From a virus: 64,000 nucleotides of DNA. The stretch spans positions 1 to 64,000 of IMG/VR virus record IMGVR_UViG_3300031974_002457. The stretch is one strand, 5' to 3'. The translations under genes were made by a program, and so were the position numbers. Shown here one piece after another: positions 11,807 through 62,915 of the stretch. The notes under the pieces were generated by a model. It saw only the letters and a program-made list of their open reading frames with translations. It did not search any database and was not told the DNA's origin. The stretch's first letter is position 1. Each line of letters starts with the position of its first letter.

Positions 11807-12599
11807 AATAACAATAGAACAAATACTAGACCCAATAACACCAAGAAAGTTTTTTAAAGAATATTGGAATAAAAAACATTTAGTTATAAGAAGGAATAGT
11901 TTTAAAAATCTATATACTTGGAATCATTTTAGCAATTATTTAAATCAATATCCTAAGATAAATAATCTTCAGATAATAGATTATAATGATAAAAATGATA
12001 GATGGTGTTTAGATAAAATTAGAAAAGGTGAATTAAAAGCACCGATGATAAGTAAACAAAAGGTTTATGATCTGTTTAAAAACAAAAACAAAACAATTGT
12101 AATACCATTTGCTGAATATCAAAATAAAGCTTTAGTTGATGTTTGTTTTACGCTTGAAAGATTTTTTGGTTCAGGTCAATCAAATGTTTATATTTCACCA
12201 TCTGCTAAATCAAAATCATTTCCAGCTCACGCTGATAGTACTGAAAACTTTTTGTTTCATACTGAAGGTAGAGTTAAATGGAAAATATATGAAGAGTTTG
12301 CGCCTGGTAAACCTAAAAATGTTATAGATGAGTTTATACTAGAAGCAGGTGATTTATTATATATACCACAGTTTCAGTTTCATGAAGTAGAAACTATTGG
12401 ACCAAGAATACTTGTTAGTTGTCATTTTAAAAACAAAGAAAGGCAATCAATAAATAATTTTAAAGTAACTCAAATAGAGGATAGCAAAAGAAACAAATGG
12501 TACAATTGGAAACCAGAGCTTTATATTAATGATAAAATTAACCCCGACTTTGCTTATAATTTTAGGCATACAGGTGGTTGGAAAAAGAAATATTTATGA
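11799..12599 (+). CDS. Cupin-4/JmjC-like Fe(II)/2-oxoglutarate oxygenase
   Basis: A 266-residue protein. The start (ITPRKFFKEYWNKKHLVIRR) matches the N-terminus of RoxA/YcfD-type ribosomal oxygenases. The cupin core has H144-A-D146 (HxD metal pair), GRVKWKIY and AGDLLYIPQFQFHEVE with H195 as the likely third ligand. Relatives hydroxylate Arg or His of ribosomal proteins or modify tRNA or small molecules. The phage substrate is unknown; it is followed by a second cupin and the KDO genes, so a sugar or virion-protein target is also possible. Confidence 0.72.
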   Translation: MDRITIEQILDPITPRKFFKEYWNKKHLVIRRNSFKNLYTWNHFSNYLNQYPKINNLQIIDYNDKNDRWCLDKIRKGELKAPMISKQKVYDLFKNKNKTIVIPFAEYQNKALVDVCFTLERFFGSGQSNVYISPSAKSKSFPAHADSTENFLFHTEGRVKWKIYEEFAPGKPKNVIDEFILEAGDLLYIPQFQFHEVETIGPRILVSCHFKNKERQSINNFKVTQIEDSKRNKWYNWKPELYINDKINPDFAYNFRHTGGWKKKYL

Positions 12600-12940
12600 A
12601 AGCAGGAAAAATATGGGGTAAAACAGAAATGATCCATAAAAACGGCGTCATGGAGTTTCACCGAATAGAATTTAATAAAGGATTTAAATGCTCTGAACAT
12701 GAGCATAGATTTAAGTGGAACGGATTTTTTGTAGAGTCCGGTAAAATGCTTGTCAGAGTTTGGCAAGAAGATCAAGGTCTTGTTGATGAAACAATACTTG
12801 AAGCAGGTGATTTTACTATGGTTAAACCTGGTAAGGTACATCAGTTTGAAGGTATTGAAGATGGTGTTGCTTTTGAATTATATTGGGCTGAGTTTAATCA
12901 CGATGATATAATCAGAAGAACAGCTGGAACTAAGATATGA
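12596..12940 (+). CDS. Single-domain cupin protein
   Basis: A 114-residue protein; the start at ATG 12596 overlaps the previous stop (ATGA), which favours it over the in-frame 12578 start. The cupin barrel has CSEHEHRFKWNGFFVESGKM (two or three His/Glu metal ligands) and a second motif AGDFTMVKPGKVHQFEG. Such proteins are isomerases, dioxygenases or sensors; sugar-nucleotide enzymes next to it suggest a role in sugar metabolism, but the substrate cannot be read from sequence. Confidence 0.75.
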   Translation: MKAGKIWGKTEMIHKNGVMEFHRIEFNKGFKCSEHEHRFKWNGFFVESGKMLVRVWQEDQGLVDETILEAGDFTMVKPGKVHQFEGIEDGVAFELYWAEFNHDDIIRRTAGTKI

Positions 12941-13593
12941 AAAACATAGCTGTAGTTATACCAGCAAGACTTAATAGTACTAGAATCAAACACAAAATGT
13001 TAAAGAAGTTTGGTGACGAACCTCTAATACGTCTTGTGTTTGATAAAGTACGTATGATGGGCTTTGATACATTTGTTGCTACTGATAGCAAACGTATTGC
13101 AAAGCATATACCACCTAAATGGTGTGTCATTACTGGTAAAGCCAATAACGGTACACATAGGTTGTCTAAGCGCGTTGTATTAGATTTAACAAATAGCTAT
13201 GACTATATATTAAACATACAAGGTGATATGATAGATATAAATTTAGATACTATAAACCCAATTAGAAAAGCTTTAAATGATAATGACTATAGTTGTTTAA
13301 CCGCTTATACTAAAGGAGCTAAAGCAGATGATGTAAAGGTTATACATCAAAATGGTAAAGCTATGTGGTTTACAAGATCTGATATAGGATATGGTGATAG
13401 GCATTTAGGAATATATGCTTATAAACCTAGTGTATTAAAAAGTTACAGAACACTAAAAGATAAATATCCAATAGAAAACCTAGAACAAAATAGAATACTA
13501 GGTATATACGATTTAAATGTAATTGAAACTAAATATGAAGGATACGAAATCAACACAGAAGAAGATATTAATAGCAGGTCCTTGCTCTCTTGA
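12937..13593 (+). CDS. kdsB: 3-deoxy-manno-octulosonate cytidylyltransferase (CMP-KDO synthetase)
   Basis: A 218-residue protein with IPARLNSTRIKHKML (CTP-binding loop), NGTHRLSKRV, NIQGDM (metal-binding Asp), HLGIYAYKPSVL and the C-terminal GYEINTEEDI. These are the KdsB landmarks; E. coli KdsB is about 30 residues longer. It joins KDO to CMP, giving the donor for KDO transferases. It overlaps the previous gene by ATGA and kdsA by 59 bases. One uncertainty is that related CMP-sialic-acid type synthetases share the fold, but kdsA beside it makes KDO the best substrate. Confidence 0.85.
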   Translation: MKNIAVVIPARLNSTRIKHKMLKKFGDEPLIRLVFDKVRMMGFDTFVATDSKRIAKHIPPKWCVITGKANNGTHRLSKRVVLDLTNSYDYILNIQGDMIDINLDTINPIRKALNDNDYSCLTAYTKGAKADDVKVIHQNGKAMWFTRSDIGYGDRHLGIYAYKPSVLKSYRTLKDKYPIENLEQNRILGIYDLNVIETKYEGYEINTEEDINSRSLLS

Positions 13594-14302
13594 AAGTGAG
13601 TTACAAGCTATTGCATTAGCTAGTGATTTACAAGAACTAGCTGATAAATATAATTTTGATTATATATTCAAAGCTTCTTTTGATAAAGCAAACAGAACTA
13701 ATTTGCATTCACCTAGAGGACTAGGATTAAAAAAAGGTATAAAGATATTCGAAAGAATAAAAAATACAATAGGTTGTAAAATTACAACCGATATACATGA
13801 ACCTTGGCAAGCGGCAGAGCTATTAGATGTTGTTGACATTGTACAGATACCTGCTTATCTATGCAGACAAACAGATTTATTAATTGCTGCTGGTAGATCT
13901 TTTTTAGGTGTTAATATAAAGAAAGGTCAGTTTATACAAGGTTCTAATATGATTAATGCGGTTAATAAAGTTAAAAGTACAGGTAATAGTAATATTATGC
14001 TAACTGAACGAGGTAGTATGTTTGGTATGGGTGATCTTGTTGTAGATTTTAGACAAATCGTCGATATGAAAGAATTAGGCGTACCAGTTATAATAGACTG
14101 TACACACTCAACTCAAAGACCAAACTCAGGTAAAACAACCGATGGTCAACCGCGCTATGCTATACACCTTGCAAAAGCTGCTAACGCTATAGGCGTTGAT
14201 GGTTTCTTTTTTGAAGTACATCACGATCCTAGCATGGCAATAAGTGATGGATCGAATATGATAAAGTTTAGTAACTTTGAGAATATATTAAAACAATTAT
14301 GA
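13535..14302 (+). CDS. kdsA: 3-deoxy-8-phosphooctulonate synthase
   Basis: A 255-residue protein from the ATG at 13535 (a TTG at 13523 is possible). It has LIAGPCSLESE, FKASFDKANRTNLHSPRG, ITTDIHEP, QIPAYLCRQTDLL, LTERGSMFG, VIIDCTHSTQ and a final EVHHDP, all KdsA signatures. Cys17 in GPC marks the metal-dependent class (as in Aquifex), not the Asn of the E. coli enzyme. It condenses PEP with arabinose-5-phosphate. KdsC (phosphatase) and KdsD are not seen and would have to come from the host. Confidence 0.93.
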   Translation: MKDTKSTQKKILIAGPCSLESELQAIALASDLQELADKYNFDYIFKASFDKANRTNLHSPRGLGLKKGIKIFERIKNTIGCKITTDIHEPWQAAELLDVVDIVQIPAYLCRQTDLLIAAGRSFLGVNIKKGQFIQGSNMINAVNKVKSTGNSNIMLTERGSMFGMGDLVVDFRQIVDMKELGVPVIIDCTHSTQRPNSGKTTDGQPRYAIHLAKAANAIGVDGFFFEVHHDPSMAISDGSNMIKFSNFENILKQL

Positions 14303-14730
14303 AAAGTAAAAGATCTTGTGACGGGTGTACTGTATGCTGCGATGGTAGATTACTACTACATATACATGGTAACGAATGGGTAGGTAGACCCTGCCAGTTT
14401 GTAAAAGAAGGTGTAGGATGTGGTATATATAAAGATAGACCTAAAAATCCTTGTGCTGTTTTTCAGTGTTCTTGGTTAAAGGATGAAAATTATCTTTATC
14501 CAGAGTGGCTAAAGCCAGACAAATCAAATCTATTAATTATGGACTGGAAAAAAACTAAAACAGGTATACCATATGTTATAGCTGTTGGCGGTAGAGATGG
14601 TTACGACAAAGAATCAATGTTGTGGTTAATAGAACACTGTAATAAAAGAAATTTAAACTTAGAACTTATACTACAAGGTTCTAAGCATTATATAGGTAGT
14701 AAAGAATTTAGAAAATTTTTTAAAAAATGA
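14299..14730 (+). CDS. Cysteine-cluster protein (YkgJ / CxxCxxCC-like)
   Basis: A 143-residue protein with CDGCTVCCDG near the start and CQFV, CGIYKDRPKNPC and FQCSW later: the Cys pattern of the zinc- or iron-sulphur-binding YkgJ-type family. In bacteria these are poorly understood. It sits between kdsA and a glycosyltransferase, joined by ATGA overlaps at both ends, so it belongs to the same transcription unit. Its role in the sugar pathway is unknown. Confidence 0.68.
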   Translation: MKSKRSCDGCTVCCDGRLLLHIHGNEWVGRPCQFVKEGVGCGIYKDRPKNPCAVFQCSWLKDENYLYPEWLKPDKSNLLIMDWKKTKTGIPYVIAVGGRDGYDKESMLWLIEHCNKRNLNLELILQGSKHYIGSKEFRKFFKK

Positions 14731-15371
14731 GAATATTTATAGGACACGATAGTAAATATCCGTTGGCTACTAAAGTATGTAGAAAGTCAATGGAGCTACA
14801 TAATGATAATTTAGATATAACTTATGTAGATAAAGAGCATTTAAAAAGAATTAACTTTTATGGTAGAGAAGATTTGCCTGGTGAATCAACTGAGTTTTCA
14901 TTTACCAGGTTTTATATACCAATGATATGTAATTATAGTGGTATAGCTATATTTTGTGATAATGATTTTTTATGGAAGTGTGATCCGCTTGAAGTAGAAA
15001 AGTACTTAGGTGATAATGATATAGCTGTTGTAAAACATGAAGATTACGAAGCACAATCAAACAAAATGAATGGTATAAAAAATAAATCATATCCAAGAAA
15101 AAACTGGTCTAGCCTTATTGTTTTTAATTGTTCTAAATTAAAACATTTAAGTAAAGAATATTTAGACAACGCGTCTGCTTCAGATTTACATGAATTAAAA
15201 TGGGCAGACAAAATAGGTGAGATACCTAAGTCGTATAATCATTTAGTAGGTATATACAAACCTCATAGTAAAATAAAAGCTTTACATTACACCAACGGTG
15301 GACCTTGGTTTAATGAGTATAAAAATGGAGAAAAATCATTAGATTGGTGGACAGTATACGAAGCCTTGTAA
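14727..15371 (+). CDS. Glycosyltransferase, GT8-like (GT-A fold)
   Basis: A 214-residue protein starting MRIFIGHDSKYP, with the DxD-type metal motif in FCDNDFLW, NWSSLIVFNC and ALHYTNGGPWF near the C-terminus. These fit GT-A transferases of the GT8 or phage-type group, which use UDP- or GDP-sugars. It is in the KDO gene set and overlaps the next transferase-like gene. The acceptor could be host surface glycan, a virion protein or modified DNA. Confidence 0.72.
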   Translation: MRIFIGHDSKYPLATKVCRKSMELHNDNLDITYVDKEHLKRINFYGREDLPGESTEFSFTRFYIPMICNYSGIAIFCDNDFLWKCDPLEVEKYLGDNDIAVVKHEDYEAQSNKMNGIKNKSYPRKNWSSLIVFNCSKLKHLSKEYLDNASASDLHELKWADKIGEIPKSYNHLVGIYKPHSKIKALHYTNGGPWFNEYKNGEKSLDWWTVYEAL

Positions 15372-16144
15372 AAGATAAATCAATAATATTCGTTGGCAAC
15401 TCTGTAGAGATCATGCATCATAAACATGCTGACTTTATAGATAGCCACGATATTGTTGTTAGGTTTGGTAGAGCTATAGAGGCTACACCTAAACAAGAAG
15501 AATCTATAGGTCGTAGATGTGATATATGGGTGACTGGTCAATTTAGAGCACCTATATTTAGAGAGAAAAGAAAAATGTTTGATACTAAATGGAAAGATAC
15601 TAAGATATTAGTTAATAGATGTAGAGGTAATTTTCATTTAAAAGACTTTGTTTTTGAAGATCGTTTACCAAAAGGTATGCAATATACTCAAATGTATACT
15701 GATCAAGAAATAATAGACCGTATGTCTGCTTTTAATAAAGATGTTGGTAGTTCTAGAAAAGGTGAGAATAAAAACACATTAAGACCAAGTGCTGGTTTTA
15801 TAACTATACTTTGGTTTATAGAAAAAATTAGAACATACAAAAGTATATCGTTAATAGGCTTTGATTTTTTTGCTAAGTCTATTAATGAAAGAAGAACAGA
15901 TAAAGATGGTATTACAAGTAGATGTAATCCTCATAGTTGGCATATGCCTGTTTATATGTTAGAGCACTCAGCTCATGATATGGATTTAGAACAAGAATAT
16001 ATGTCGTTCTTAGAAAGGAAGGGATTGTTTACTTGGCACGTGTTGAGTGATTTATCTAAAAATGATATTAAATATACCGAATGGCTTGACGGTTTAAAAA
16101 GAATAAAGTCAATTCCTAAAAGATCTAAAATATCAAAGATCTAA
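15347..16144 (+). CDS. Sialyltransferase-like (GT29/GT42-type) glycosyltransferase
   Basis: About 265 residues; no ATG is available near the N-terminus, so it probably starts at GTG 15347 or TTG 15344, inside the previous gene's end. IIFVGNSVEIMHH...IDSHDIVVRFG resembles sialyl-motif L, and RPSAGFITILWFIEKI...ISLIGFDFF resembles sialyl-motif S. GT29-type enzymes use CMP-sugars. With kdsA and kdsB in the same unit, a KDO-transferring role is attractive, but this is inference. The C-terminus overlaps the opposite-strand methyltransferase gene by 12 bases. Confidence 0.65.
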   Translation: MDSIRSLVKDKSIIFVGNSVEIMHHKHADFIDSHDIVVRFGRAIEATPKQEESIGRRCDIWVTGQFRAPIFREKRKMFDTKWKDTKILVNRCRGNFHLKDFVFEDRLPKGMQYTQMYTDQEIIDRMSAFNKDVGSSRKGENKNTLRPSAGFITILWFIEKIRTYKSISLIGFDFFAKSINERRTDKDGITSRCNPHSWHMPVYMLEHSAHDMDLEQEYMSFLERKGLFTWHVLSDLSKNDIKYTEWLDGLKRIKSIPKRSKISKI

Positions 16145-16147
16145 AAT
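16119..16147. repeat. Short direct repeat at the convergent junction
   Basis: A 13-base unit containing AGATCT occurs twice (16119-16131 and 16135-16147), spaced by 3 bases, where the plus and minus blocks meet. The last codons of both genes are encoded here. No terminator hairpin with a T-run was seen, so transcripts may run into each other. Confidence 0.6.
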
Positions 16148-16702
16148 CTTATCTCTTTTCATACCTAAAAATTCTACATGACCAAGAGTCGCTTTAATAT
16201 CATGAAGAGTAAAATAACGTTCAAACCTATTTAACCACCAATGAGGTTGCTCTACTATAGTATGTAAATTTTTAGGCTTTTCATCTTTCATAGTCGATCT
16301 AAAATTATTTGAAGCTGGCCTTGTACATATTTTATGGTATGTCCAATTATTAGTTTTATCGTATATAAACTGTAAAGTATTATCAAGATATTCCGGCTCA
16401 ATGTGCTCCATTACGTCTGCTGAAAAACTAGCATCACATACTGGTGGGTTTATCCACTCATCAAAAGCTGGATTACCTGGATCATATGGTATTATCTTAT
16501 AATAATCCTCATAATTACTCATAAATATTTCTTGCTGTCGAGATAAAACACCTTTACCCGCACCAAAATCTAAAAGAGTTTTAGATTTAGTTAATAGCAT
16601 ATATTTATGTATCATCTCTTCGTAGCCTTTGCAGGCTCCACCCCAATGTCCCTTATGATGATCTCGTATAAGGGCGAGGTATTCATCGCTATATAATTTC
16701 AT
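16133..16702 (-). CDS. SAM-dependent methyltransferase-like protein
   Basis: A 189-residue protein with LLDFGAGKGVLSRQ (SAM-binding motif I), IPYDPGNPAFDEW (the acidic end of beta 2) and ASFSADVMEHIEPEYLDNTL (motif IV-like). It resembles class I methyltransferases that act on small molecules or sugars. It is the last gene of the late block, converging on the glycosyltransferase gene. The substrate is unknown. Confidence 0.7.
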   Translation of the reverse strand: MKLYSDEYLALIRDHHKGHWGGACKGYEEMIHKYMLLTKSKTLLDFGAGKGVLSRQQEIFMSNYEDYYKIIPYDPGNPAFDEWINPPVCDASFSADVMEHIEPEYLDNTLQFIYDKTNNWTYHKICTRPASNNFRSTMKDEKPKNLHTIVEQPHWWLNRFERYFTLHDIKATLGHVEFLGMKRDKILDL

Positions 16703-47937: not shown

Positions 47938-48212
47938 TATTTAGATCTTCTTTCAGCAAAACCAGAAAAAGACTCTTGCTTAACTTCTTCTTTTACATTA
48001 CCGTCAAGCATGTCTTGCTCGTCTTGTATTTTATTTAATATTTCAAATGCATCAAATATAGCTAGCTTCTTTGTTGCTGCAGCATTTTTTAATCTATCAG
48101 CAGATACATCATCTTCTGTTTCTACAATTTTTTCTTTAGCAACTTTAATTAATTCATCAACAGCTTTATACCCAGCTTGGATTATATTCTTCTTCTTTTC
48201 CTTGATATTCAT
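47937..48212 (-). CDS. Possible small terminase subunit
   Basis: A 91-residue helical protein with DELIKVAKEKIVETEDDVSAD and RLKNAAATKKLAIFDAFEIL. It directly precedes terL with a TAATG overlap, and its size and charge suit a TerS-like or packaging accessory protein. No DNA-binding HTH is clear, so the call rests mainly on position. Confidence 0.5.
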   Translation of the reverse strand: MNIKEKKKNIIQAGYKAVDELIKVAKEKIVETEDDVSADRLKNAAATKKLAIFDAFEILNKIQDEQDMLDGNVKEEVKQESFSGFAERRSK

Positions 48213-48762
48213 ATTTAATTGTCATTGCTTTAGTTAATACTCTATATAGCCTTTCACCATTTATTATAAATTCATATTCACTTCTAGGTGTAAAACCTAC
48301 AAGATCACCAACTTTTAATTGCTTTAGTTCATCACTATTATTAGAATATTTCAAAACACCAACGCAAGGAGTTTCTTTATCTAAACTGAATATATCATTT
48401 GAATAAATTGGCTTTACAAAACAATAATCATCTATTGATTTCCAAACACCATTTTGTTTATAAAGATACATTTGATCTAATTGAACAAAATATTGATCTT
48501 CTTTAAAATAGCTCTTACTGTTTTGCTCTACACCTCTAACATCTTTCCATCTTCTAAAAACATTATGGTGCACTATTACTTCATCACCTGGTTTTACATC
48601 AGTTTTAATACCTAATGGCACAGATAAAACAATAGCGCTTCTATTAACGTTTTGATGTGTAAAGTTTTCTGTATTTGTAATAAGCGATTTATCACCTATT
48701 TTTTTAACATTGTTGTATCTAGAACCTATTGGTTTAACAACAAAGTAATATAAACCTCTCAT
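48166..48762 (-). CDS. Tandem GroES-like domain protein
   Basis: A 198-residue protein with two similar halves: FVVKPIGSRYNNVKKIGD...VKPGDEVIVHHNVFR, and YCFVKPIYSND...LKVGDLVGFTPRSEYEF. Both follow the GroES barrel plan (start VKPI, then VGDxV with a loop). It may act as a co-chaperonin cap, as T4 gp31 does for capsid folding, or use the fold for another structural role. It is separate from the groES gene at 61103 and lies just before the terminase genes. Confidence 0.65.
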   Translation of the reverse strand: MRGLYYFVVKPIGSRYNNVKKIGDKSLITNTENFTHQNVNRSAIVLSVPLGIKTDVKPGDEVIVHHNVFRRWKDVRGVEQNSKSYFKEDQYFVQLDQMYLYKQNGVWKSIDDYCFVKPIYSNDIFSLDKETPCVGVLKYSNNSDELKQLKVGDLVGFTPRSEYEFIINGERLYRVLTKAMTIKYEYQGKEEEYNPSWV

Positions 48763-49272: not shown

Positions 49273-50178
49273 TTACTTCTTTTTAGGATTATCGGCAATA
49301 AACCAGTCTTTATACAAATGTCTCTTTCTAGATATGTAATCCATATACCTATCAACTTTATGTCTCCAATCTTCATCTAACCAAGGATTTATAATACCTG
49401 ATTTATAATTTGAAAAAGACTTGTTAATAAATTCTCTCTTATCACCAACGTGAGCAAATAAATAGTTATTTATAGTATAAAAACTACCCATTTGTATATT
49501 GTTCCAAACGTCAATAGGTTCTATTTTTTTACCTAAAACACAAGCATAAACAGCGCTTTCACTTATATGCGTGGTGTAAATTGTTTTAGCTTTTTGCATG
49601 TAATAATACATGTCAATATCTCTAGGTAATATACACTGCTCACCAAAGAAATCTTTTAGTTCACCAATAATCTGATGTGTTGTTATTGGATGAGGTTTAA
49701 AATAAATATTATCACCATGTTTTCTTTTAATATGTCTTAACCTGTTTAAACAAACATTTGTTTTTACCTTGTTTGATCCAGGTAAAACTACTAAGTAATC
49801 TTTAGGTGGATATTTATCAAAATCTTGTTTTCTATCCATGTACTTGTTAGCAATATTTTTCTGTATATTTTCAACTAAATAACTAGAATAATCTAGCGTT
49901 TTACATTTAGTGCACCCATCATTCCAGGCATCTGCTAACTGTTCGTTTCTTAACTTAAAGTTTAAAGGTTGCATATAAAAACTTGTTGCAAACTCTGTAT
50001 AACCTATAGTTTTAAAATATGGCATTTCTTCAGCTAACACATCATAGCTTGATTCTAAACCATATTCACTACACTTTCTAATAACATAACCTTCTATGTT
50101 TTCTAGCTCGTATAGCTTTTTTTCTTTTTTTAAAGGACCTATTCTATTATCTAGCTCCTTTTTATTAAACATTTCCAT
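49273..50178 (-). CDS. Putative KpsC/KpsS-like (capsule-type KDO transferase) GT-B enzyme
   Basis: A 301-residue protein. The C-terminal half has NIYFKPHPITTHQIIG, PRDIDMYYYMQKAKTIYTTH and SAVYACVLGKKIEPIDVWNN, in line with the nucleotide-sugar-binding half of capsule-synthesis family proteins (KPHP then an S/T-S-G/A-like helix). KpsC and KpsS use CMP-KDO. It lies directly after two Thr-rich fibre genes. A KDO or related transferase acting on fibres or on the host surface is an inference; the N-terminal acceptor half is not recognised. Confidence 0.55.
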   Translation of the reverse strand: MEMFNKKELDNRIGPLKKEKKLYELENIEGYVIRKCSEYGLESSYDVLAEEMPYFKTIGYTEFATSFYMQPLNFKLRNEQLADAWNDGCTKCKTLDYSSYLVENIQKNIANKYMDRKQDFDKYPPKDYLVVLPGSNKVKTNVCLNRLRHIKRKHGDNIYFKPHPITTHQIIGELKDFFGEQCILPRDIDMYYYMQKAKTIYTTHISESAVYACVLGKKIEPIDVWNNIQMGSFYTINNYLFAHVGDKREFINKSFSNYKSGIINPWLDEDWRHKVDRYMDYISRKRHLYKDWFIADNPKKK

Positions 50179-61106: not shown

Positions 61107-61369
61107 TCTACCAAAACTACATCTTTTATTGTCATGATGTAGTATTCTTTATCTTTATAAGTAATTGAGTGGCCTGAGTGTTTATCATAATATATAATAT
61201 CACCTTCTTTTATTATGTTATCAGGTGGACACAGATCTCCTTTACTTATAATTTTACCTTTTAGGTATCTATTGTCACTATCGATACTATCCGATATTTC
61301 AAGACCACCTATTTTTTTAGGTGCTAACTTGATATTTTCAACTACTATATAATAACTAACTGCTCGCAT
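61103..61369 (-). CDS. groES: Co-chaperonin GroES
   Basis: An 88-residue protein, slightly shorter than E. coli GroES (97). It starts MRAVSYYIVVENIKLAPKK, has a GroES-like LEISDSID and CPPDNIIKEGDIIYYDKHSG segment and ends with IMTIKDVVLVE as in GroES strands. It would cap the phage GroEL. It overlaps the groEL gene by 14 bases, and groEL precedes groES, the reverse of the bacterial order. Confidence 0.85.
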   Translation of the reverse strand: MRAVSYYIVVENIKLAPKKIGGLEISDSIDSDNRYLKGKIISKGDLCPPDNIIKEGDIIYYDKHSGHSITYKDKEYYIMTIKDVVLVE

Positions 61370-62915
61370 TTTCTACTCTTATATTATTAATTACACAATC
61401 TGCAGAAAATATAGTAGTTGCAACGCTAACTGCATTTTTTAGCGCTGTCTTTGTAACTAAGACGGGGTCTACGATACCAGAATCGACCATTTTTACTAGT
61501 TTACCGGTTGTTACGTCGTATCCAACACCTATTTCGCTAGGCGTATCGTAGTTTTCAATACCAGCGTTCTCCATGATGGTTATGAACGGTGCTTTTATAG
61601 ACTTTGCTAGTATTTCTTCCCCAATACCTTCAAATTTTATGCTATTTGCAGCATTTAAAAGCGCAATACCGCCACCTGGGACAATACCTTCTTTCAAAGC
61701 TGCTTTAACTGCGTAAATAGCATCCTCAACTCTGTCTTTTTTCTCTTTTAACTCAACTTGTGAGTTAGCTCCGACTCTAATTATACCAACAGAACCGTTT
61801 AACATAGCTAATCTTTGCTCTAATCTACGCTTAATATATTGATTTTTTTCTTTTTTAATGCTTTTTGTAATGTCTTTTATTCTGCCTGACAAATCTTCGC
61901 CTAAATCGTATGTTGTAAGCACTGTATTTTTGTCATCAGTAACACAAAGTCTAGCTTCACCAAGCACATCTGGCTCAATTAAGTCTAAATCATCGCCTAA
62001 TTCTTCATTTATTACTTTAGCACCCGTTAAAAACGCAAGATCATCAACTGTATCTCGCTTAGTTGGGCCAAAACCAGGTGTATTTATGATATTTACCTTG
62101 ATATTACCCTTAACTTTGTTCATTAATAGCGCTGATTTTACTTGTTGTGATACTTCAGCTACTATTAATAATGCTCTATTTTTCTTTATTACGTGTTCTA
62201 GCACGTTTTGTATCTTTCTAACGTTAGGTATTTCGCCAGAAACGATTAAAACATATGGATTATCAAGTTCACATGTGCTTCTTTCATTATCTGTAGCAAA
62301 ATATGGTGATGTTAAGCCACTTTCAAGCTGTACACCTTCAACGATGTCAGTGTAAGTTTCATCAGTTTCGCTCTCTTCCATTAAAACTACACCATCTTTA
62401 CCTACTTTATTGTAAGCATCAGCAATAATACTGCCAAGAACTGTATCGTTATTACAAGATATGCTAGATACATATTCGAGATTTTTGCCAGATACTGCTT
62501 CTGATTGTTCAGATAAGTAATCCAGTACTTTTTTACAACCAGAATTAATGCCTTCTTTAATTTTTCGTACATCTGTATTAGATTCTAGTGTTTTTAAAAG
62601 TGATTCAGCAAGTACGATAGCCGTAGTGGTACCGTCACCTGCCTCTTTCACTGTGTTTTTAGCTGCTTCTTTGATAAGTGTTGCACCTATATTTTCGACC
62701 GGATCATATAAGACAACCGATTCTGCTACGGTTACACCGTCTTTTGTTATCACCGGCCTACCCATTGCGTCTTCATATATAACGCACTTTCCTGAAGCAC
62801 CTAATGTAGACTTAACTGCTTTCGCTAGTTGATCTACGCCACTCATTATTTTGTCATTAGCATCAGAACCAAAGTTAAGATGCTTTACCAACTGACTTGG
62901 GTTATTATATTCCAT
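61356..62915 (-). CDS. groEL: Chaperonin GroEL
   Basis: A 519-residue protein with the hallmark GRPVITKDGVTVAE, AGDGTTTAIVLAE (nucleotide-binding) and EDAIYAVKAALKEGIVPGGGIALL (the catalytic Asp helix). It is close to full GroEL length, with a 10-residue N-terminal extension, and without the Gly-Gly-Met tail. It would fold phage capsid or tail proteins during late expression. Full-length phage GroEL with its own GroES is uncommon. Confidence 0.93.
   Translation of the reverse strand: MEYNNPSQLVKHLNFGSDANDKIMSGVDQLAKAVKSTLGASGKCVIYEDAMGRPVITKDGVTVAESVVLYDPVENIGATLIKEAAKNTVKEAGDGTTTAIVLAESLLKTLESNTDVRKIKEGINSGCKKVLDYLSEQSEAVSGKNLEYVSSISCNNDTVLGSIIADAYNKVGKDGVVLMEESETDETYTDIVEGVQLESGLTSPYFATDNERSTCELDNPYVLIVSGEIPNVRKIQNVLEHVIKKNRALLIVAEVSQQVKSALLMNKVKGNIKVNIINTPGFGPTKRDTVDDLAFLTGAKVINEELGDDLDLIEPDVLGEARLCVTDDKNTVLTTYDLGEDLSGRIKDITKSIKKEKNQYIKRRLEQRLAMLNGSVGIIRVGANSQVELKEKKDRVEDAIYAVKAALKEGIVPGGGIALLNAANSIKFEGIGEEILAKSIKAPFITIMENAGIENYDTPSEIGVGYDVTTGKLVKMVDSGIVDPVLVTKTALKNAVSVATTIFSADCVINNIRVENASS

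What the first reader, a model, noticed from the sequence alone, without database searches (positions are those of the whole stretch)
12937..16144. A phage-encoded CMP-KDO supply with candidate KDO transferases
kdsA and kdsB are adjacent, in the same unit as a GT8-like and a sialyltransferase-like (CMP-sugar-type) enzyme; a KpsC/KpsS-like protein lies at 49273-50178 next to Thr-rich fibres. Established: KdsA and KdsB make CMP-KDO; KpsC/KpsS-type enzymes transfer KDO; GT29-type enzymes use CMP-sugars. Inference: the phage boosts or redirects KDO to host surface glycans or to its own fibres. KdsC and KdsD are missing and must come from the host or be replaced.
Basis: partly seen in the sequence, partly recalled or inferred. 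Interest (0 to 1): 0.85.

Follow-up and report, generated by a model that had tools for sequence, protein, structure and literature searches.

The report
Phage sugar-activation genes beside sialyltransferase-like enzyme
A marine virus of bacteria carries two genes for making the activated bacterial sugar CMP-KDO next to an enzyme of the sialyltransferase family that could attach it, a set that recurs in dozens of related viruses and probably changes the sugar coat of infected cells.

Summary
In detail: kdsB-like (12937-13593) and kdsA (13535-14302) overlap in one unit with a GT8-like gene (14727-15371) and a GT29 gene (15344-16144) in a marine podophage related to Flavobacterium/Cellulophaga phages. 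KdsA passes the curated KDO8P-synthase cut-off; the KdsB-like protein is closest to solved KdsBs but below every KdsB model cut-off. GT29 membership is confirmed by Pfam, sialylmotifs and fold. KdsC and KdsD are absent. The block cupin-kdsB-kdsA-GT8-GT29 recurs in dozens of viral contigs, but kdsB-kdsA is optional: cupin-GT8-GT29 often stands without it, and GT29 motif residues do not differ. The KpsC/KpsS claim fails: 49273-50178 lacks the QXXXD nucleophile of characterised retaining KDO transferases and occurs in 13 of 13 family records whether or not kdsA is present. One candidate KDO transferase remains, the GT29 (precedent: plant RCKT1); its donor is untested. New: 72 of 74 sampled phage KdsB sequences carry Asn at a magnesium-ligand Asp that 29 of 30 cellular homologues keep. 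Phage kdsA/kdsB were already known as auxiliary metabolic genes. Best reading: phage-supplied CMP-ulosonate feeding GT29 modification of the host surface.

The parts
12596..12940 (+). small cupin-fold protein, most conserved gene of the block
   Evidence: PF07883 31.9 bits. Directly before kdsB here. In other marine phages without the GT29, 17 of 29 cupin loci with enough flank have kdsA and kdsB, kdsA 0.2-4.3 kb away. Invariant His residues.
12937..13593 (+). KdsB-like CMP-ulosonate synthetase (probable CMP-KDO synthetase)
   Evidence: PF02348; best PDB matches all KdsB. Below KdsB equivalog cut-offs. Mg-A ligand Asp replaced by Asn206 (PMC3149649).
13535..14302 (+). KdsA, KDO-8-phosphate synthase (Cys-containing, metal-dependent type by motif)
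   Evidence: TIGR01362 and NF003543 over cut-off. Motif residues C17, K46, N53, R54, H191, E227, H229 kept in 99-100% of about 99 distinct phage KdsAs.
14299..14730 (+). small Cys-rich protein (phrog_9155), present only in some relatives
14727..15371 (+). GT8-like glycosyltransferase (phrog_28018)
   Evidence: No Pfam/NCBIfam match. Invariant acidic D78/D80 and HxTxGGPWF motif. Homologues annotated as glycosyltransferase in Mosig, DLP_6 and S-SCSM2R.
15344..16144 (+). GT29 (sialyltransferase-family) protein, candidate KDO transferase
   Evidence: PF00777 over cut-off. Sialylmotif L VGNS, motif S RPS.GF/GFDFF, motif VS H211x4E216 invariant. AlphaFold2 model matches GT29/GT42 structures, best E 2.7e-8.
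16133..16702 (-). methyltransferase-like protein at the end of the block; related methyltransferases are inserted elsewhere in the block in relatives
   Evidence: phrog_24759 methyltransferase 1.1e-16; no Pfam over cut-off.
49273..50178 (-).
   Evidence: No Pfam/NCBIfam match. Weak GT-B hits incl. KpsC and KrkA. No conserved QXXXD, HP motif kept. In 13 of 13 family records irrespective of kdsA.

Best explanation
The block is a surface-glycan modification unit. Its core is cupin, GT8-like and GT29; an optional kdsB-kdsA pair raises the supply of the CMP-activated ulosonate. KdsA condenses arabinose-5-phosphate with phosphoenolpyruvate, the host provides KdsD and KdsC, and the phage KdsB-type enzyme activates the product with CTP. 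GT29 then transfers the ulosonate (KDO or a close relative) from the CMP donor to a host surface glycan, with GT8 adding a further sugar. The likely benefit is a changed receptor or envelope during infection (superinfection exclusion, or less loss of progeny on debris). Shown: gene identities, GT29 fold, motifs and recurrence. Inferred: that CMP-KDO is the GT29 donor, that the acceptor is the host surface, and the benefit.
For: KdsA over the curated cut-off. KdsB fold family, with nearly all KdsB residues tested other than the Mg-ligand Asp kept. GT29 confirmed three ways. In KdsB-bearing relatives with enough sequence downstream, 29 of 35 carry GT8 and GT29 after kdsBA. kdsA and kdsB recur near the same cupin in another marine phage lineage, and cyanophage S-SCSM2R has kdsA, kdsB and the GT8-like gene together. 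A plant GT29, RCKT1, is the KDO transferase of pectin RG-II by genetics (PMC11288761). KdsC and KdsD are lacking, as expected if the host supplies them.
Against: 29 of 37 GT29 loci found by GT29 alone have cupin-GT8-GT29 without kdsAB, five of the longest records lack kdsA altogether, and DLP_6 has GT8-GT29 without detectable kdsA. So GT29 does not need phage-made donor and could use another CMP-sugar. The eight bacterial GT29 neighbourhoods sampled show no kdsA/kdsB near the gene; three have pyruvyl-transferase-like genes and one has apparent pseudaminic-acid genes. The phage KdsB lacks one of two Mg-A ligands. No host, acceptor or phenotype is known.
Confidence: 0.5

Rival explanations
1. 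kdsA and kdsB only top up the host's ordinary lipopolysaccharide core synthesis, so that the envelope stays intact through infection. GT8 and GT29 do something separate with another sugar.
For: kdsAB is dissociable from GT8-GT29 and occurs without them in L023/L025. KdsB is described as rate-limiting in LPS synthesis (PMC3149649). kdsA/kdsB are listed as marine viral LPS auxiliary genes (PMC10653327).
Against: Where kdsBA is present in this family it is mostly inserted directly in front of GT8-GT29 (29 of 35), which suggests a shared use.
Confidence: 0.25
2. The KdsB-like protein, with Asn at a metal ligand, and GT29 handle a different ulosonate than KDO (for example 8-amino-KDO or a nonulosonate); the unit makes a phage-specific sugar.
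For: 72 of 74 phage sequences carry Asn where 29 of 30 cellular homologues carry Asp. Score below all KdsB model cut-offs. Cupin, methyltransferase, SDR and radical-SAM genes occur in the block of relatives and could tailor a sugar.
Against: KdsA is a clear KDO8P synthase. The changed residue binds metal, not sugar. No amination gene was seen.
Confidence: 0.15
3. The sugars are put on the phage's own fibres: CMP-KDO is used by GT29 or by 49273-50178 to glycosylate virion proteins.
For: 49273-50178 and its Caulobacter-phage homologues lie beside tail-fibre and neck genes, and its model resembles GT-B enzymes.
Against: 49273-50178 lacks the QXXXD nucleophile and is present whether or not kdsAB is. 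The kds block is in the metabolic half of the genome, next to nrdAB.
Confidence: 0.08

Closest known systems
kdsA/kdsB as viral auxiliary metabolic genes (marine viromes, PMC10653327; cyanophage S-SCSM2R PQ898602)
   Same: Phage-borne kdsA and kdsB; in S-SCSM2R also the GT8-like gene nearby.
   Different: Here a fixed operon-like block with a GT29 and a cupin in a non-cyanophage podophage family, and a KdsB with Asn at the Mg ligand; S-SCSM2R KdsB keeps Asp.
GT29 family, plant RCKT1 (PMC11288761)
   Same: GT29 fold and sialylmotifs; RCKT1 is supported as a KDO transferase.
   Different: The phage protein is about 15% identical to solved GT29s and its donor is untested; RCKT1 itself has genetic, not in vitro, proof.
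KpsC/KpsS (GT107), WbbB (GT99), KrkA (GT140) retaining beta-KDO transferases (PMC10148158, PMC9587256, PMC12887879)
   Same: 49273-50178: weak GT-B fold similarity (KpsC TM 0.38, KrkA E 5e-4) and an HP motif.
   Different: No QXXXD nucleophile, no sequence similarity, not linked to kdsAB.
Stenotrophomonas phage DLP_6 methyltransferase-GT8-GT29 genes
   Same: Adjacent GT8-like and GT29-like genes with a methyltransferase.
   Different: No kdsA or kdsB match found in this phage.

Membership tests
KdsA (KDO-8-phosphate synthase, TIGR01362) | curated equivalog score | tested here: met
   321.9 bits, cut-off 314; NF003543 333.5, cut-off 242
KdsA (KDO-8-phosphate synthase, TIGR01362) | conserved active-site motifs | tested here: met
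   C17, KxSFDKANR, H191, E227xH229 present in the window and in 99-100% of about 99 phage sequences (F49 87%)
KdsB (CMP-KDO synthetase) | cytidylyltransferase fold family and nearest solved relatives | tested here: met
   PF02348 over cut-off; all 13 PDB matches are KdsB
KdsB (CMP-KDO synthetase) | curated equivalog score (TIGR00466) | tested here: not met
   66.8 bits against 155.2; filed as KdsB-like only
KdsB (CMP-KDO synthetase) | two strictly conserved Asp ligands of Mg-A (D95, D219 in A. aeolicus, PMC3149649) | tested here: not met
   D97 kept; second is Asn206 in the window and Asn in 72 of 74 phage sequences
GT29 | Pfam PF00777 gathering score | tested here: met
   27.1 bits, cut-off 23
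GT29 | sialylmotifs L, S, VS (HX4E) | tested here: met
   invariant VGNS, RPS.GF/GFDFF and H211x4E216 in A1
GT29 | GT29 fold | tested here: met
   31 PDB matches with E<=1e-3, all GT29 or GT42 sialyltransferases (one listed only as a glycosyltransferase); model pLDDT 76
GT29 | CMP-KDO as donor | not testable with these tools
   needs an enzyme assay
KpsC/KpsS and other retaining KDO transferases (GT107/GT99/GT140) | QXXXD catalytic nucleophile | tested here: not met
   no conserved QXXXD in 28 sequences; motif defined in PMC10148158, PMC12887879
KpsC/KpsS and other retaining KDO transferases (GT107/GT99/GT140) | fold | tested here: inconclusive
   KpsC E 7.6e-4 TM 0.38, KrkA E 5.3e-4, but UDP-GlcNAc epimerases score alike
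GT8 | family profile match (Pfam/NCBIfam) | tested here: not met
   no Pfam or NCBIfam match; called GT8-like only
GT8 | resemblance to a solved GT8-type enzyme | tested here: inconclusive
   6mw5 galactosyltransferase only at E 0.55, sharing the C-terminal PW motif and an acidic motif
Complete KDO pathway | KdsC and KdsD present | tested here: not met
   KdsC in none of 13 records; KdsD absent from the window's 67-kb record and 11 of 12 others, one unrelated record has a partial KdsD

The most novel reading that the evidence does not exclude
Marine phages share a phage-type CMP-KDO synthetase with a changed metal site (Asp to Asn) that, in this family, feeds a dedicated GT29 KDO transferase, which would be the first GT29 KDO transferase known outside plants and a phage-run KDO surface-modification pathway.
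Probability: 0.3. Interest if true: 0.75.

Novelty: new variant of a known kind. Interest (0 to 1): 0.5.

Why it matters
KDO is a hallmark of the Gram-negative envelope, the surface that phages meet first. A recurring phage block that makes and may attach it gives a concrete, testable case of envelope remodelling by uncultured marine phages. It also bears on what non-animal GT29 enzymes use as donor. The Asn-for-Asp change in phage KdsBs is a sharp biochemical question about a well-studied two-metal enzyme.

Tried and rejected
KpsC/KpsS identity of 49273-50178: rejected on motif and co-occurrence. The ~600-nt extra gene between kdsB and kdsA in L011-L021 as KdsC or KdsD: it is methyltransferase-like (best Pfam match just under cut-off in L014, over it in L165). 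The cupin as a KDO-specific KdsD substitute: not favoured, since it also heads GT8-GT29 blocks without kdsAB, though it recurs near kdsAB in other phages. GT29 sequence differences tracking kdsAB: no fully discriminating column. Bacterial GT29 neighbourhoods as a guide to donor: no kdsA/kdsB near the gene in eight. PDB sequence searches with GT29, GT8, cupin and K49 profiles gave nothing significant. The one genome scan with the GT29 profile found only a phage-like contig in an Alphaproteobacteria MAG. PADLOC was not searched.
Full report
WHAT IS THERE. The window lies in a 67.4-kb IMG/VR virus record. Its terminase is closest to an uncultured podophage (62%) and to Flavobacterium and Cellulophaga phages (best 45%), so a marine Bacteroidota host is likely but not shown. 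Downstream of nrdB-nrdA run a JmjC-like protein, a cupin, a KdsB-like protein, KdsA, a Cys-rich protein, a GT8-like protein and a GT29 protein, all on the + strand with overlapping or abutting ends. KdsA passes curated cut-offs of KDO8P synthase models. The KdsB-like protein belongs to PF02348 and its 13 PDB matches are all KdsB, but it scores below all KdsB models' cut-offs. KdsC and KdsD are not in the record.

GT29. The protein at 15344-16144 exceeds the PF00777 cut-off. Its 23-sequence alignment keeps the sialylmotifs, including HX4E. The AlphaFold2 model (pLDDT 76) finds 31 PDB chains at E<=1e-3, all GT29 or GT42 sialyltransferases (one, 5cxy, is listed only as a glycosyltransferase). GT29 enzymes use CMP-sugars. 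Plant RCKT1, a GT29, is needed for KDO on RG-II (PMC11288761); bacterial GT29s with the same motifs were described in PMC5811610. The donor of the phage enzyme is therefore a CMP-sugar by family, and KDO by context only.

RECURRENCE. The order cupin-kdsB-kdsA-GT8-GT29 recurs in dozens of viral contigs. In 35 KdsB loci with enough downstream sequence, 29 carry GT8 and GT29. But of 37 GT29 loci with enough upstream sequence, 29 have cupin-GT8-GT29 without kdsA. Among the long records examined, five with GT29 have no kdsA anywhere and two with kdsA have no GT29. On the GT29 tree the presence of kdsAB needs about four changes, at least two forced by well-supported branches, and no alignment column separates the two kinds. 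So kdsBA is a gained or often-lost pair placed between the cupin and GT8. The simplest account is that GT29 uses a donor the host already makes, and kdsBA adds to the supply. CMP-KDO fits, since Gram-negative hosts make it, but this is inference. Outside this family, 17 of 29 cupin loci carry kdsA and kdsB, with kdsA within 4.4 kb, in a marine lineage with a different, conserved gene neighbourhood.

KPSC/KPSS CLAIM. The 49273-50178 protein has no Pfam, NCBIfam or PDB sequence match. Its model (pLDDT 79) gives weak GT-B matches, among them KrkA and KpsC but equally UDP-GlcNAc epimerases. The structurally characterised retaining KDO transferases share a QXXXD nucleophile (PMC10148158, PMC12887879). 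No QXXXD is conserved in 28 homologues, while an HP motif is. The gene is in 13 of 13 family records, seven of them without kdsA (two of these are clear fragments), and its Caulobacter-phage homologues lie by tail-fibre and neck genes. It is a core GT-B-like gene of the virion module, not shown to handle KDO.

A CHANGE IN KDSB. In A. aeolicus KdsB, Mg-A sits between two strictly conserved aspartates, D95 and D219 (PMC3149649). In the window these are D97 and N206. Of 74 phage sequences with a residue there, 72 have Asn (41 of 41 in this family, 31 of 33 in others; the two exceptions have Asp). The 74 are distinct open frames; the window itself may be counted twice and overlapping loci are not fully merged. 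D97, R11, R16, K20, R75, E180 and E183 are invariant where covered, K134 in all but one, while position 15 is Thr in 36 of 41 and 30 of 34. Of the 30 best-matching cellular KdsB-like proteins fetched from a search of 240 genomes of one class, 29 have Asp. The cellular sample comes from one class only. The change may alter metal use, rate or substrate; conservation of the rest argues against a dead enzyme.

WHAT IS KNOWN. kdsA and kdsB have been listed as auxiliary genes in surface marine viromes (PMC10653327) and annotated in cyanophage S-SCSM2R. A literature search for phage GT29 proteins returned nothing in the library held. The block is best called a new variant of a known kind.

LIMITS. 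No host, transcript, enzyme activity or glycan is known. Contig fragments limit absence claims. Scans keep the best 80 loci, so proportions lean to near relatives of the window.

Noticed in passing
12937-13593 (codon 206): Mg-ligand Asp replaced by Asn in 72 of 74 marine phage KdsB sequences but in only 1 of 30 cellular ones sampled.
   Followed up: partly
49273-50178: GT-B-like core protein whose homologues sit beside tail-fibre and neck genes of unrelated Caulobacter phages; also one in DLP_6.
   Followed up: partly
48166-48762 and 61356-62915: GroES-like and GroEL proteins encoded by the phage.
   Followed up: no
L038 6179-7691 and L165 1797-3270: Radical-SAM/SPASM and short-chain dehydrogenase genes inserted between the JmjC-like gene and the cupin in relatives.
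   Followed up: partly
L198 record (G016), 138658-139119: Partial KdsD-like gene at a contig end in a kdsA-bearing phage of another lineage.
   Followed up: no
L354, L356, L360: Bacterial GT29-like genes beside polysaccharide pyruvyl transferase-like genes (PF04230 confirmed in L354 and L356, by eye in L360).
   Followed up: partly
L199: Phage-like contig with the same block binned in an Alphaproteobacteria MAG.
   Followed up: no
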